Shown in pieces: positions 10,204 through 49,958 of a stretch of 64,000 bases of DNA. The stretch lies in the NCBI GenBank assembly GCA_004802725.1, contig SGPM01000001.1, positions 372,001 to 436,000 on the forward strand, in the 5' to 3' direction. The notes under the pieces were generated by a model, which ran no database searches, had not been told where the DNA came from, and saw only the letters and a program-made list of their open reading frames with translations. Source of the DNA: Antrodiella citrinella. Lineage: Eukaryota; Basidiomycota; Agaricomycetes; Polyporales; Steccherinaceae. Position 1 is the first letter of the stretch. Every line of letters begins with the position of its first letter. The position numbers were made by a program, and so were the translations under genes.

Positions 10204-12418
10204 ATGCGCCTTCATCCTCGGCAGACTTTGACCGCACCCTCTGGCCAGTCTGCCACGGCCACCTCTGGCGACTCTCCGTCTTCACAGCTTTCCGCGTCTC
10301 GAGGTGTGTCCTCTTTCCTTTCTCCTTTACAGTCGCTGCACCCATTTTCATCTTCATCTTCGCCTCCAATTTCCGCGTGCTTTAGCCTTTTCCTCCATCC
10401 CCATACGCGTTTTCCTCATTCTCTCTTTTCAAAGGCGTTGCTGCTTCCTCACCACCGTCAACCTCGCCTTCTCTTCCAACATCTCCAACCCTTTCCGCAC
10501 CCTCGAACGCGGCAGCCTCTTCACCGTCTCAGTCCATGTCCACGAACCCATCTCCACCTGCATCTGTGTCCTCCCAATCTCCAGCACCTACTGACTCTTC
10601 TCCTGCTTCTCCTCTGTCTACCCCTGCTCCGCCTACATCTACTCCTGCTTCTCAACCCTCCGATCCTCCAACGTCTGCGCCCAACTCTATGGCGACAGGT
10701 TCGTCCGCTGCCTCTGCACCTTCTTCACCACCCGCGTCCCTGTAAGTGCTTCTTGGCTGTGCCTGATTTCCCGTGCTCATTCCCACAATTGTTATTCTCA
10801 GAGCGCCCTCGTCTCCGCCTGCGACAGCGAGTTCAGACCCACCAACCACCATGAGTACTCCGTCGAGCACCCCATCCTCCATACCGTCCTCGACGCCATC
10901 CTCGACACCGTCTTCTACGCCGTCTTCTACGCCGTCGTCGACCCCTTCGTCGACCCCCTCGTCGACACCCTCGTCAACGCCTTCATCGACACCTACATCG
11001 ACACCTTCATCNACACCCTCTTCAACACCCTCTTCAACACCTTCGTCTACTCCTTCATCTACACCCTCGTCTACACCTTCGTCCACACCCTCGTCGACCG
11101 CAGCTTCCACACCCTCGTCTACACCGTCNTCAACGCCTTCGTCTGCACCGTCTACTACGCCCTCATCGACTCCGTCTGCTACCCGGACGTCTGCACCGGT
11201 GTCAACTTCTGATCCNGCAGCAACGTACGTGCTTTTTACACCAGCAAAGTGACCCGCATATTTACTAACTCCACACCAGTACGACTTTCCCGACTGTAGT
11301 TGTCGTTACGGAAACCGGTACCAACGGACAGGTCGTCACCACCACGCCACCATTCGTTACTCAAACGGTTACGACAGTTGGGAGCAACGGTAGCCCAAGC
11401 ATCGTCACTATCATAGGAAGCAACCCAACCACAATCAACTCCAGCAACGATGCAGGTGGAGCGTCACAGTAAGTCTCCCTCCCGATGCATCTGGCCTCCG
11501 GTCGTTCGCAACTTCTAATCCCTTTCCCATCATCGTAGGTTCTTCCGAAACAAAGGCGCTGTGGCCGGTGTTTTCCTCATTGTAGGTCTGGCGGCAGCAT
11601 CTATTGTGCTCTTCCTGTACTTCTTCATCCGGAGACGGAGGCGCACAGCTCGGTTGGAGCATGATGCAGCTGTCGCATCGACGCTCGCTGAGGCAGGGTT
11701 CAACCGTACACCTGTGGACGGAGACGATGATGATGTCAGGATGAGACAAAACTCGTTTGGCACACGGACGTTCGGCTCTATACCAAGCGCAAGCCAACCG
11801 GGGACGCTTGCTAGTGCCGGTGGTGCGCCACCTGAACGATATCTGGACGACCCATTTGCAGCTCCGCCTCCGCTTGAATTCAACCCTTACGATGGATTCG
11901 GTGCAATCGCGGCCCCTGCTGCTGCTGTTGCGGGCACTAGTCGCAATGGGTATGCACCAGCCCGCACGAGTAGCCCACCGCCCGGTGGAGGACATAGCCA
12001 TAATCATAGCTACAGTTCCAGCTCGGGAGGACACGCCGCTCGTGAGAGTGCTGGTAGCTTCGAGCCGCTGCTTGCTCAGTACAACAAGAGCTCTGGACCG
12101 ACACCTCCACTCACGCCTGGGGTTTCTCCCAATAGTCTGGCCCCGCCGCCCGTGGTGCCACCACGGAATCCTGCGCGAGATACGGAGTCCAGGCCCAATA
12201 CACGGAGTGGCGAAGGTCCCGTCACGAAAGATGATGCGAGCTCTGTTTACTCGGCCGAGGGCGATCTGGTTCCAGACTTGACGCCTCAAACCAAGTTGGA
12301 GGTAAGCTCTAGGTTTAGGGTATCGTGTGTCGTCATTGTCTGACGATGGACTCTTCGTTCGTAGATTCGCAATCTCCAACCTGGAGACATCTCTCGTGAC
12401 CCCTCCATCCGACGATGA
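10204..12418 (+). CDS. Ser/Thr/Pro-rich single-pass membrane protein B (paralogue of A)
   Basis: Exons 10204-10303, 10435-10741, 10802-11224, 11280-11468, 11539-12301 and 12365-12418 join in frame. The ectodomain is rich in Ser, Thr and Pro, with a tandem TPSS array at about 10860-11200, then a VTETGTNGQVVTTT segment. Across the exon 4/5 junction comes QFFRNKGAVAGVFLIVG, a transmembrane helix and FFIRRRRRT. The tail is Pro-rich (PPPVVPPRNP) and ends SRDPSIRR. The FF-x-N-x-GAVAGVFL block and the intron phases around it match protein A. No signal peptide is obvious. A surface sensor or polarity role is inferred only from architecture. Three N bases (11012, 11129, 11216) lie in the repeat exon, so the repeat count may be wrong. 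Confidence 0.8.
10860..11200 (+). repeat. TPSS-coding tandem repeat
   Basis: A 12-bp unit coding Thr-Pro-Ser-Ser recurs more than 20 times with codon changes (ACG, ACC, ACA; CCG, CCC, CCT). In the protein it forms an extended, probably O-mannosylated stalk. The Ns at 11012 and 11129 show that the assembly was uncertain here. Confidence 0.8.
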
Positions 12419-46666: not shown

Positions 46667-47344
46667 ATGTTCGTCTTCCGCGCCCTTTTCTCCTCCGCTC
46701 TCGCCCTTGTTCTTGCTGGTCAGGCTCTCGCCTACCCCATGCCTATGCCCCTCAGAGTCAGTACCCATATTTGTCATATTTCGCTCCCTTTTGACCCATG
46801 CAAACAGCGCGGACTCCAGCACCGTGAACCCACTCCTCTTGACACGATTCCGGTCTACGTTCGCAGTACCAACACGATCCCCGCCGAGGTAGCAACTAAA
46901 GCCCCGAACGGTGTCATCCAAGAATACAAGCGTTCGACGAATACCATTCCTGCTGAAGTTGCGACCAAGGCTCCCAATGGTGTGATCCAAGAATACAAGC
47001 GTTCGACCAACACTATCCCTGCTGAGGTCGCAACCAAGGCCCCCAACGGTGTAATTCAGGAATACAAACGTTCGACGAACAAGATCCCTGCTGAAGTCGC
47101 CACGAAAGCTCCTAACGGTGTTATCCAAGAATACAAGCGTTCGACGAACACCATCCCCGCTGAGGTTGCTACCAAGGCCCCCAACGGTGTCATCCAGCAG
47201 TATAAGCGTTCGACTAACACCATCCCGGCTGAAGTCGCAACGAAGGCACCCAACGGCGTTATTCAGGAGTACAAGCGGTCCACCAACACCATCCCTGCGG
47301 AAGTCGCGACTAAGGCACCTAACGGTGTCATCCAGAAGTACTAA
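46667..47344 (+). CDS. Secreted Kex2-type repeat peptide precursor (seven near-identical copies)
   Basis: The precursor has about 208 residues after removal of an in-phase 51-bp intron (46760-46810, GTCAGT...AACAG). MFVFRALFSSALALVLAGQALA is a clear signal peptide, followed by YPMPMPLRRGLQHREPTP and a short spacer ending VYVR. Then come seven copies of a 23-residue unit, STNTIPAEVATK-APNGVIQEY-KR, each joined by Lys-Arg, the classical Kex2 site. The last copy ends in KY and stop, with no Lys-Arg. The only amino-acid changes are Thr to Lys in copy 4, Glu to Gln in copy 5 and Glu to Lys in copy 7. There are no Cys, no glycosylation sequons and no CaaX box. The likely product is a 21-residue peptide ending in Tyr. 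Function unknown: a signal, a surface-coat (repellent-like) peptide or a RiPP precursor are possible. Confidence 0.9.
   Translation: MFVFRALFSSALALVLAGQALAYPMPMPLRVSTHICHISLPFDPCKQRGLQHREPTPLDTIPVYVRSTNTIPAEVATKAPNGVIQEYKRSTNTIPAEVATKAPNGVIQEYKRSTNTIPAEVATKAPNGVIQEYKRSTNKIPAEVATKAPNGVIQEYKRSTNTIPAEVATKAPNGVIQQYKRSTNTIPAEVATKAPNGVIQEYKRSTNTIPAEVATKAPNGVIQKY
46865..47341 (+). repeat. Seven tandem 69-bp peptide-coding repeats
   Basis: Units start at 46865, 46934, 47003, 47072, 47141, 47210 and 47279; the last is 63 bp before the stop. Copies 1 and 2 encode the same 23 residues, yet 16 of 23 codons differ, all at synonymous sites. The repeat is therefore old or under strong protein-level constraint and is not a recent expansion. 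Confidence 0.95.
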
Positions 47345-47789
47345 ACTCGTCTAGCTCTGGTATGTCTCGTCTCACTTCATTATTGACTACTCGGCTGACT
47401 ATGCATGTTTCACAGTGAGCAACGTACATGATCAGCGCGGAGCGTGTTGCACTCCTAGATATGCAGAATCACCACTGCTTTCCATTCACCTTCCAGTTGT
47501 ACTGGTCGCTGTAGGAGGCTTTATTGGTTCCCGAACTTTCACTTTCCTTTACACCCCGTTTCATCATTTTGCTCCAGTAGCATCCTTTTTGTCCTCGTTG
47601 CTGCGCATACACAAATACATTTGGTTCGAGATTGGGAAAACTACTGTCCTTTGTGTGTGACGTGATGTGATGCGACGGAACCTACACTAAGCCTGCAGGC
47701 AGACAGAGCCTGGCAGGCAGCCATAGCGACGAGCATGCAGTACTGGACGTATCATAGATACCTATGTCACTGTGAGCGAGGCAGACGTA
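47345..47789. other. 3' UTR of the repeat peptide gene and convergent spacer
   Basis: A likely 3' UTR intron lies at 47360-47415 (GTATGT...TTCACAG), just after the stop. The rest holds the terminators of the repeat peptide gene and EED. No coding signal was seen. Confidence 0.45.
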
Positions 47790-49958
47790 TCATGGTACCT
47801 GCACGTCGGAATCATCACGCAGTCTCCACATGTACAACGTGCTGTTCTTGCCTACGCCAAGCACGACCGCGCCCCTAGCAGCCACCTCGCACGCTTCGAC
47901 GTTCGACATGTCCATCTTCGTTACCTGCGCCGCCCTCTGTACACCGATGGTCCACTTGGGCACAGCTTCCAGCAAGGGCAACGGGACTGGCAGGGCTGGG
48001 AATCTGTCTTTCGGACGCACGAGTCTACTTTCTTGATGATCTTCATCTCCGTCTCTGTATGGATCTTCTTCTTCTTCTTCCATACCGGCTTTACCCATAC
48101 GCTGTGCGAGGTCTGAGACTTGTCCGTCGACCAATTCTGCGTCCAAGGGGAACGCGGGAGGAACGCGTGGCTTGAAGTTCGTGATGTTGAAGATGTGAAT
48201 GACTCGATCGTCTGGCACGAGCAGGATTGGGTCGTGGCTAGCTGGATCGTAGAATACGCTGATATATCTGCAATGAAGCGGTAAGGAGTAGCTTGAGATG
48301 ATCTTGAAGCTCTCTAATTGACCGCCCTTAGAACGTTGTACAAGAGGGTAGAGAAAAGTCACTGACGGCTGCCCTTATAATCCTGCGAGAGCGAGTCAGC
48401 TCACTGAAAGAAGCGCGTCGTTAAGATAACTCACACTCGCGCACCCTCTCATCACTTTCTGCATCGGCTTTTCAGCAGGCATGAAACGATCGAAGCCCAG
48501 CCATCTCCAGATCACGACTGAATATTCACTTCAGTCCAGCGTTGTAGTTACAGGGAATCTCGGATCCTACCTGCTCCTGGTTCATCGTAAAATTCGTTCT
48601 CGTCCTCACCTCCTCTGTACGTGCGCATGGGAGCCGGCGCACCATGGGAAATGAGCATATCATGTCCTAACCTGAGGACGTCGCGTCAAACATGGTGGAT
48701 ATACATGAAGCGGGCAGCATACCACGCGATAGAGAGAACTCGCGCCTTGTGAACGAGGTTGGTACTGAAGAAAGGCTTGTCCTCTCGAGCAAGCTTGTCT
48801 GGATCCATGGGAGGTATGCGCCAAATTTTGACGCAGCGATCCACCTGTAGAAGCGTTTCCTTGAATTAGTATTCAAGAGATACTTCGCTTCTTAAAACTC
48901 ACTCCGCAAGTAGCTATCAATGATGATGTAGGATGAAAAGCCTGGCCGCATACTTGTAAGTGTTAAATCTCTCAGTCGGCATATAATCACACTGACCGCA
49001 CTGAGCACAGCAGCGTCATGCCCTCCAGAGCGACCACCCACTAATACAGCGACACATCTACCCATTCCATCACCTTCACTCTCGGACGCCATCAACCCGA
49101 AAGCAGGACCCGCACGACTCGGAACTGTACTCGGGGGCCAATGCGGGTTGTTCGGTTGCTGACGAGCGTCGGAAGTTAGGTCATATATTCGTGTCGTCAT
49201 GTCTTTAGACGTTGTGCAGAATATGTAAGGGTGTCTTGGGTGTACGGCGATCGAAGTGATTTCCTATATTCAAGTTTGAGCTGAGACACAGCACAAAAGG
49301 TGAATGACGAGAACTTACTCCGCCATGTCCGCGAAGGGTCCCCTTCACCTGTCTGGCGTTGGCATCTACGACAAAGACCAAGCTGTAAGCCGTGAATATG
49401 ATCAGAGGCTCTGCTGGTGCGTTCGAGCTCAATGCCCATGCTATACAACGGACTTCAAACGTCGACTGCTGAATATCGTCAACCTGAAAATATGCAATGA
49501 GCAATCTGTTAGAGAGCAGAGACGAAGGTCGACTGGAAAGTGACAAGTGCGGCTTACGATGTTGTCCTCCGGTAGTTTGATCGTAAACGAGCTACATTTC
49601 TTGGACGCGTACCGAGGAAACACGATTAACTTGCCAGTGGTCCCAACACATATCGTGCCCTGCCACTTTGCCATAGTGTTCTTCCACAGTGGCACTAGTG
49701 CATCGTTTTGCGCGTGTTCACCATCCCACAACGTCTCGAGGGACTTCATATCCCAAGGAAACACGGACGTTGTATGAAACGGCGGCGCGTTGTCTCTATC
49801 AAGCGATTTCTGAACACATACAGTTCAGAAGTCCAGTGAATAGTATTGGATACTCGATGTGGGCGTACCGAAAGAAAACCGGACAGTATAAATGGCACAG
49901 GCTGGTGCTCCGGGTCGCGTCGGTACCATGGCGTGTCGAATTGCTCGGATTCCTCCAT
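47790..49958 (-). CDS. EED-type WD40 protein (Polycomb repressive complex 2)
   Basis: EED binds H3K27me3 and activates the EZH2-type methyltransferase. Start MEESEQFDTPWYRRDPEHQ at 49958. WD repeats include WQGTICVGTTGKLIVF, RCIAWALSSNAPAEPLIIFTAYSL, GTLRGHGGEITSIAVHPRHPYIFCTTSKD, GGHDAAVLSAAFHP and TCGVDRCVKIWRIPPMD; the RGHGGEI and SKDMTTRIYDL blocks match EED rather than other WD40 families. Later blocks are PILLVPDDRVIHIFNI, an acidic insert EEEEEDPYRDGDED and the closing strand GVGKNSTLYMWRLRDD. At least ten short introns. The companion genes SUZ12 and EZH2 are not in the window. It is divergent from the NDUFA11-like gene (277 bp). Confidence 0.85.

What the first reader, a model, noticed from the sequence alone, without database searches (positions are those of the whole stretch)
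46667..47344. Secreted precursor of seven near-identical 21-residue peptides with Lys-Arg linkers
Signal peptide, then seven in-frame copies of a 23-residue unit ending in Lys-Arg, the recognition site of the Golgi protease Kex2. The last copy stops directly after the Tyr that would be the C-terminus after trimming, which fits a defined peptide end. No family of this sequence is known to me. Possible roles are an extracellular signal, a surface-coat peptide like the Ustilago repellents, or a precursor of a modified ribosomal peptide. No DUF3328/UstYa-like, tyrosinase or methyltransferase gene is visible in the window, which argues mildly against a local RiPP cluster.
Basis: partly seen in the sequence, partly recalled or inferred. 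Interest (0 to 1): 0.92.

Follow-up and report, generated by a model that had tools for sequence, protein, structure and literature searches.

The report
Mushroom multi-copy secreted peptide precursor
This mushroom-type fungal gene encodes a secreted protein built to be cut into seven near-identical 21-residue peptides, and it belongs to a peptide family already described in other mushrooms whose job is still unknown.

Summary
Window 46667-47344 (+) encodes a signal peptide, a short leader and seven units of STNTIPAEVATKAPNGVIQEY (three vary by one residue). Six are followed by Lys-Arg; the last ends at Tyr-stop. Correction: a 51-nt in-phase, stop-free intron (46757-46807) is very likely spliced out, giving 208 residues. 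The units' synonymous sites are saturated (pS 0.74) while the peptide barely changes (pN 0.034), so each copy is kept by selection. Searches gave 42 homologues, including Sparassis, Amanita, Serendipita, Tulasnella and one ascomycete. 38 of the 42 carry the core by pattern. The published Coprinopsis cinerea peptide pyro-QIPAELPTKSINGNIEPY, from KEP 497993, fits the same profile. That peptide was found by mass spectrometry in young caps but not in culture fluid, and its deletion gave no axenic phenotype. No UstYa match lies on the window's contig. Verdict: new member of a known kind (KEX2-processed repeat protein, KEP-497993 type) making linear peptides. The likeliest role is an extracellular signal or interaction peptide; that is inferred, not shown.

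The parts
46667..46756 (+). exon 1: signal peptide MFVFRALFSSALALVLAGQALA, then YPMPMPLR
   Evidence: residues 6-21 mean KD 1.84 and ALA before Tyr23; no signal-peptide program was available
46757..46807 (+). likely intron, 51 nt, GTCAGT...CAG, in phase and without a stop
   Evidence: homologue leaders fit the spliced form better in 14 of 18, tie in 3, worse in 1
46808..46864 (+). leader RGLQHREPTPLDTIPVYVR; the splice junction makes an Arg-Arg, a possible Kex2 site; ends in a single Arg before the first unit
   Evidence: compare RRALSARMPEPLDTIPAYIKR in P0005 and YPMPMPLRR in Sparassis P0006
46865..46933 (+). unit 1, STNTIPAEVATKAPNGVIQEY-KR
46934..47002 (+). unit 2, same peptide, KR
47003..47071 (+). 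unit 3, same peptide, KR
47072..47140 (+). unit 4, STNKIPAEVATKAPNGVIQEY-KR
47141..47209 (+). unit 5, STNTIPAEVATKAPNGVIQQY-KR
47210..47278 (+). unit 6, STNTIPAEVATKAPNGVIQEY-KR
47279..47344 (+). unit 7, STNTIPAEVATKAPNGVIQKY then stop TAA

Best explanation
It is a single-copy KEX2-processed repeat protein (KEP) of the conserved Agaricomycete family represented by Coprinopsis cinerea KEP 497993. The signal peptide sends the 208-residue precursor into the secretory pathway. Kex2 cuts after each Lys-Arg, probably after the leader Arg-Arg, and perhaps less efficiently after the single Arg before unit 1. A Kex1-type carboxypeptidase trims the basic residues. Up to seven linear 21-mers with a free C-terminal Tyr result from each precursor. 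Release of such a peptide is shown by mass spectrometry for the C. cinerea relative and is inferred here. My best guess for its action is that it is an extracellular ligand whose conserved parts (IPxE, Lys, turn Gly, C-terminal aromatic) are read by a receptor or target, between hyphae or in dealings with other organisms. I put that functional step at about 0.35 and identity plus processing near 0.9. The confidence below is for identity and processing, with function weighed in lightly.
For: Layout and coordinates. Homologues: 13 at E<=1 and 41 at E<=0.01 with a profile, 42 distinct in all. Core profile from 87 17-mers of 38 precursors (window included); the published C. cinerea core, not in that set, scores 42.3 bits against a best of 17.4 in 200,000 shuffles and is identical to the window core at 10 of 17 positions, reached by 0 of 200,000 shuffles. 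Mass spectrometry of that peptide in C. cinerea, ending at Tyr or Tyr-Lys, and its loss in the knockout (PMC9769878, sections read). 32 of 43 precursors end exactly on Tyr/Phe (Y+F are 6.1% of residues). pN/pS 0.046 between copies with saturated synonymous sites. Own genome has a kexin-type gene (S8 plus P domain), S10 carboxypeptidase matches, and no second copy found.
Against: No transcript or peptide data for this gene. The full KEP 497993 sequence was not found in the protein database, so only cores, not leaders, were compared with it; Ile at position 10 of its core is not seen in my profile. In C. cinerea the core peptide was mainly in premature caps and not detectable in culture supernatant; the peptide found in fluid was another product of the same precursor, QVPVDEPA. 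The peptides confirmed in shiitake and oyster mushroom fruit bodies all end in AADW and are not of this family, although homologues are named in those species. The knockout had no growth or fruiting phenotype, and no antibacterial activity of synthetic KEP peptides was seen. 78 of 136 cores have one extra residue between the aromatic and the dibasic site, so many relatives need further trimming to expose it. AlphaFold gave no confident structure (mean pLDDT 47.9).
Confidence: 0.85

Rival explanations
1. Structural surface peptide: the peptides assemble on aerial hyphae or the wall, like the repellents cut from Ustilago maydis Rep1.
For: Same kind of precursor; Rep1 peptides are Kex2 products that act on hyphal wall properties and form amyloid-like fibrils (passages, introduction). 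Many copies per precursor suit a bulk material. The C. cinerea core peptide was found in cap tissue and not in culture supernatant.
Against: The 21-mer is short and polar; Rep1 peptides are given as 37 residues. The C. cinerea peptide was taken from tissue by a methanol soak and passed a 10 kDa filter, so it is extractable and small. The knockout grew normally. Rep1 itself was not aligned here.
Confidence: 0.15
2. Precursor of a modified, cyclic peptide (dikaritin-type RiPP) made with UstYa-type oxidases encoded elsewhere in the genome.
For: Dikaritin precursors share the layout; the core has a Tyr; this genome has UstYa-type genes (15 matches).
Against: None of the UstYa or tyrosinase matches is on the window's contig. 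Umemura reports 0 of 64 type #7 KEPs with DUF3328 genes within 15 genes, if this gene is of that type. The C. cinerea relatives are linear, reported with pyroglutamate as the modification, which Ser at position 1 cannot form here.
Confidence: 0.05
3. Peptide aimed at other organisms: a defence or interaction peptide rather than a signal among the fungus's own cells.
For: No axenic phenotype in six kep knockouts, and the authors favour biotic interaction. The family also occurs in Serendipita and Tulasnella, root associates (recalled).
Against: No antibacterial activity against the five bacterial strains tested. A sequence kept alike across fungi of different lifestyles fits a self or common target better than an arms race (inference).
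Confidence: 0.35
4. Alpha-pheromone-like mating or fusion signal.
For: Alpha-type pheromone precursors of ascomycetes share the layout; a DPPIV_N (PF00930) gene, the family type of Ste13 (recalled), is present in this genome.
Against: Units start with Ser-Thr, without the XA/XP dipeptides that Ste13 removes, and hold no Trp; basidiomycete mating pheromones are of the prenylated a-type; the C. cinerea knockout fruited normally.
Confidence: 0.05

Closest known systems
Coprinopsis cinerea KEP 497993 (Vogt et al. 2022, PMC9769878)
   Same: Secreted repeat precursor with Kex2 sites; core QIPAELPTKSINGNIEPY against window core ..IPAEVATKAPNGVIQEY, 10 of 17 identical; it fits my profile at every position but the tenth; peptide ends at Tyr
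   Different: C. cinerea core starts with Gln (pyroglutamate) where the window has Ser-Thr-Asn-Thr; a second peptide QVPVDEPA has no counterpart seen in the window; full sequence not compared
KEP type #7 (G-1/P-2) of Umemura 2020 (PMC7329392)
   Same: Most widespread KEP type: 64 KEPs, 62 strains, 49 genera, near single copy, high Tyr content, 0 of 64 beside DUF3328. It includes Coprinopsis, Pleurotus, Hypsizygus and Panaeolus, where KEP 497993 or homologues are named, and one ascomycete genus. Two odd Pfam labels of the type, DUF2188 and DUF1648, also arise by weak chance matching on my homologues P0002 and P0040
   Different: The type's repeat profile is in a figure and supplement that I could not read, so membership is inferred; Lentinula, named by Vogt, is not in the type's genus list
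Dikaritin RiPP precursors (ustiloxin, phomopsin, asperipin)
   Same: Signal peptide, repeated cores, Kex2 sites
   Different: No UstYa match on the contig; the C. cinerea relative gives linear peptides
Ustilago maydis Rep1 repellents
   Same: Kex2-released repeated peptides of a basidiomycete
   Different: 37-residue fibril-forming peptides; no sequence relation was tested here

Membership tests
KEX2-processed repeat protein (KEP) | N-terminal signal peptide | tested here: met
   Residues 6-21 mean KD 1.84, ALA before Tyr23; by inspection and hydropathy only
KEX2-processed repeat protein (KEP) | Repeats of near-identical peptide separated by dibasic sites | tested here: met
   Seven units, six KR
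KEX2-processed repeat protein (KEP) | Release of the peptides by Kex2/Kex1 | not testable with these tools
   Needs mass spectrometry; kexin-type and S10 genes are present
KEP 497993 family (Vogt et al. 2022) | Core peptide of the IPAE..TK..NG.I..Y kind | tested here: met
   42.3 bits against best shuffle 17.4; 10 of 17 identical
KEP 497993 family (Vogt et al. 2022) | Homology along the whole precursor, leader included | not testable with these tools
   KEP 497993 full sequence not retrieved; probe found nothing. Leaders of other homologues such as Sparassis P0006 do match
KEP type #7 / G-1 (Umemura 2020) | Clustering with the type's members by BlastP | not testable with these tools
   Member sequences are in supplements that are not available; genus list, Tyr content, copy number, lack of DUF3328 and two odd Pfam labels agree
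Dikaritin RiPP | UstYa (DUF3328) gene within about 15 genes | tested here: not met
   15 PF11807 matches in the genome, none on contig C1, which is 546,823 bases with the window at 372001-436000
Alpha-type pheromone precursor | Ste13 XA/XP dipeptides at the start of each unit | tested here: not met
   Units start STNT or STNK
Rep1 repellents | Sequence relation to Rep1 and fibril formation | not tested
   Rep1 was not fetched or aligned

The most novel reading that the evidence does not exclude
This family is a conserved peptide hormone of mushroom-forming fungi, perhaps of wider Dikarya, since one ascomycete protein (Rhypophila decipiens) carries closely similar cores. It would be read by a dedicated receptor that recognises the IPxE end, a tight Gly turn (x-P-N/D-G and the like, which would favour a small beta hairpin) and a free C-terminal Tyr/Phe. 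The window gene shows selection acting on every one of the seven copies after their DNA had diverged to near saturation, so dose (seven equal peptides per precursor) would itself be under selection.
Probability: 0.25. Interest if true: 0.75.

Novelty: new member of a known kind. Interest (0 to 1): 0.4.

Why it matters
If the type #7 link holds, this belongs to the most widespread KEP type in that survey, and it still has no function. The family-wide core and the stop placed right after Tyr/Phe name the exact peptide to synthesise, which turns 'what do mushroom KEPs do' into a receptor-binding and co-culture test. Saturated synonymous change with a near-frozen peptide in all seven copies argues that the sequence of each copy matters, despite the lack of an axenic phenotype in C. 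cinerea.

Tried and rejected
Pfam on the repeat region (exon 2) and on the spliced protein gave 10 and 6 families; 5 of 10 and 3 of 6 exceed the whole-protein cut-off, but in none does any stretch pass on its own, and the names are unrelated to one another, so I read them as repeat-driven chance. PDB profile search: 0 matches at E<=1. AlphaFold on exon 2 with 15 of the 42 homologues: mean pLDDT 47.9, no helix or strand of length, so the hairpin idea has no support from the model. A probe of eight joined copies of the published C. cinerea core found no candidate. Literature, open-licence library only: of six core-like strings, two occur, in PMC9769878 alone; six further variants occur in no paper. 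Searches aimed at a Serendipita KEP study, later mushroom KEP peptidomics and turn structure listed nothing closer (listings only). The text of Le Marquer 2019 on conserved motifs names none like this core (its figure and tables were not seen). The bacterial promoter scan is not meaningful for a fungus.

Recent homogenisation of the copies at DNA level was considered and rejected. Synonymous differences are near those of random codon choice, though with neighbour codon usage the copies are slightly more alike than random draws (51 of 5000 draws at or below the observed 13.05), while with the units' own usage they are not (4687 of 5000). Mean differences by distance between copies are 13.3, 11.6, 12.0, 13.7, 16.0 and 15.0 for distances 1 to 6; a weak rise at 5-6 rests on three pairs, two of them involving copy 1.

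Caveats on counts: the core expression itself demands Gly and a final Tyr/Phe and missed 4 of 43 precursors (P0032, P0039, P0041, P0042), so the frequencies at those two positions are not evidence. The precursor-end count (32 of 43) does not depend on it, but the 43 are related and include fragments, so its naive P is not a probability. The 0.69 turn fraction has no background control. The two protein searches scored only the 7992 and 7997 candidates sharing most words. P0007, found, did not reappear.

Full report
What is there. The stretch 46667-47344 (+) is an open frame. It encodes MFVFRALFSSALALVLAGQALA, a leader, and seven units of 21 residues; six are followed by Lys-Arg and the last ends ...QKY-stop. 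Tandem Repeats Finder reports the 69-nt period with score 536. Four units are identical in protein; copies 4, 5 and 7 differ from them by one residue each.

Gene model. A 51-nt stretch, 46757-46807, begins GTCAGT and ends CAG, is in phase and has no stop, so the frame stays open whether or not it is removed. Removing it joins PMPLR to RGLQHR, making an Arg-Arg. Of 18 homologue leaders that align with the spliced leader at a score of 45 or more, 14 score better with the spliced form, 3 tie and 1 (P0033) scores slightly better unspliced. The Sparassis crispa homologue has the identical YPMPMPLRR. I therefore take the spliced 208-residue protein as the gene product; no transcript was seen. The first unit is preceded by Tyr-Val-Arg; P0002, P0005 and P0006 have Lys-Arg at that point. 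Cleavage after single Arg was suggested by Vogt et al. from P. pastoris products (section read), so unit 1 may still be released.

Selection. Pooled over the 21 pairs of units, synonymous sites differ at pS 0.738 and non-synonymous at pN 0.034, ratio 0.046; 21 of 25 variable columns are third positions. Mean pairwise difference is 13.05 nt, against 14.69 expected if codons were drawn by the usage of six neighbouring stretches (51 of 5000 draws as low) and 11.75 by the units' own usage (4687 of 5000 as low). Nearest neighbours are not the most alike pairs, with a weak rise at distances 5-6. So the copies are old as DNA, were not recently copied from one another, and the peptide in each has been kept by selection. 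Within this gene, that is direct sequence evidence for function.

Family. A search with the spliced protein gave 13 proteins at E<=1, the weakest at 1.4e-6. A profile of these gave 41 at E<=0.01, 42 distinct in all. Six carry organism names: Sparassis crispa, Serendipita vermifera, Amanita thiersii, Amanita inopinata, Tulasnella sp. 419 and the ascomycete Rhypophila decipiens; the other 36 carry none. By pattern, 39 of 43 precursors (window included) hold 136 cores. The consensus is I-P-[AEV]-[EQ]-x-[AP]-[VT]-K-[SA]-x-x-G-x-[IV]-x-x-[YF], from 87 17-mers of 38 precursors (Gly and the final aromatic are imposed by the search expression). The Rhypophila cores have one residue more before the Gly and are not among the 87. 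Free of the expression's bias, 32 of 43 precursors stop directly after Tyr or Phe. The 11 that do not include apparent fragments and exceptions such as Sparassis ...EEFFNGPA, P0004 ...ELYGA and P0040 ...PVPFGRR. After the core, 78 of 136 have one residue and then a dibasic site, 16 have the dibasic site at once (6 of them the window's), 23 the stop and 19 something else.

Link to published work. In Vogt et al. 2022 (PMC9769878) I read the introduction, five results sections, discussion and the extraction method. They detected pyro-QIPAELPTKSINGNIEPY and its +Lys form from C. cinerea KEP 497993, primarily in premature caps and not in culture supernatant; another product, pyro-QVPVDEPA, was in supernatant and mycelium. 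These peptides were gone in the knockout, at least 13 homologues were found in other species, and no knockout phenotype or antibacterial effect was seen. The peptides confirmed in shiitake and oyster mushrooms are of another, AADW-ending kind. The KEP 497993 core, which was not in my set, scores 42.3 bits on my profile against at most 17.4 for 200,000 shuffles, and is identical to the window core at 10 of 17 positions, which 0 of 200,000 shuffles reach. The peptide end seen by mass spectrometry is the Tyr that my family count marks. Umemura 2020 (PMC7329392; one results section read, passages) names type #7 / G-1 as the most widespread KEP type: 64 KEPs in 49 genera, 1.03 per strain, 0 of 64 beside DUF3328 genes, rich in Tyr. 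Its genera include Coprinopsis, Pleurotus, Hypsizygus and Panaeolus, all named by Vogt; Lentinula, also named by Vogt, is not in the list. The type carries a list of 27 odd Pfam labels. Of 16 distinct families that my Pfam scans gave weakly for the window protein and eight homologues, two, DUF2188 on P0002 and DUF1648 on P0040, are in that list. That is a small fingerprint in favour, since by uniform chance among 24,736 models 0.02 would be expected (hand reckoning; short models make chance likelier). I infer, but could not check by sequence, that type #7 is this family.

Surroundings. The gene lies between ESF1 (RRM_ESF1 and NUC153 matches, minus strand) and an unassigned minus-strand stretch (47793-48374, no Pfam match). 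I scanned 13 window stretches besides the repeat gene, of the 74 open stretches of 150 or more residues listed, so this is a sample. Matches were a mitochondrial carrier, PINIT, NUC153, RRM_ESF1, a BRCT_2 below its cut-off, ribosomal S9 and L4, Pal1 and histidine biosynthesis; four had no match. UstYa: 15 matches in the genome, none on contig C1; tyrosinase: 3 matches, all on C237. Kexin: S8 and P-domain pieces in neighbouring frames on C21; other S8 matches on C243 and C38. S10 carboxypeptidases (26 matches) and DPPIV_N (3 matches on C37) are present; I did not show which S10 is Kex1. No second copy of the gene was found with either the window protein or Serendipita P0012 as query.

Mechanism. 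Shown in the relative and inferred here: release of a linear peptide ending in Tyr from a secretory repeat precursor. Inferred only: that the peptide is a ligand. The best reading is an extracellular signal or interaction peptide. A wall coat is less likely because the relative's peptide is small and comes out with methanol through a 10 kDa filter, but its absence from culture fluid keeps that rival alive. A cyclic RiPP is unlikely because the relatives are linear and no modifying gene of the tested kinds is near. The Gly with preceding Pro-Asn, Glu-Asn, Asp-Gly and similar pairs (weighted mean 0.69 of cores fit [PEDSK][NDGS]G, no background control) resembles tight-turn sequences (recalled), hence a possible small hairpin, but AlphaFold gave no confident structure.

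Verdict. Ordinary in kind, real in detail: a new member of a published KEP family in an unnamed fungus that looks like an agaricomycete by its nearest named relative in the search, Sparassis. The question of what this conserved mushroom KEP does stays open and is testable.

Noticed in passing
47360-47415 (+): Downstream of the stop lies a GTATGT...CACAG stretch of 56 nt with a CTGAC, which looks like a 3' UTR intron (read).
   Followed up: no
10767-11249 (+): A frame of long TPSS repeats (translation), with a few residues unreadable; a Ser/Thr-rich, wall- or mucin-like stretch.
   Followed up: partly
P0040, Rhypophila decipiens: An ascomycete protein with three closely similar cores (e.g. IPAEVAVKSDASGKAVPF, one residue longer), found only by the profile (E 1e-6); deep ancestry or transfer between phyla is open. 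Umemura's type #7 also holds one ascomycete genus.
   Followed up: no
P0009-P0014, P0016, P0018, P0019 (set resembling Serendipita P0012): In most of these nine precursors the copies differ by position: many open with a copy like IAEEDPVKTDDSGNIVNY and six of nine close with one ending ISLY or LSLY, unlike the near-uniform copies of the window gene.
   Followed up: no
G000 contigs C9, C168, C581, C309, C90, C584, C565: UstYa matches lie on seven contigs of this genome, several with more than one match, a lead for dikaritin-like clusters elsewhere in it.
   Followed up: no
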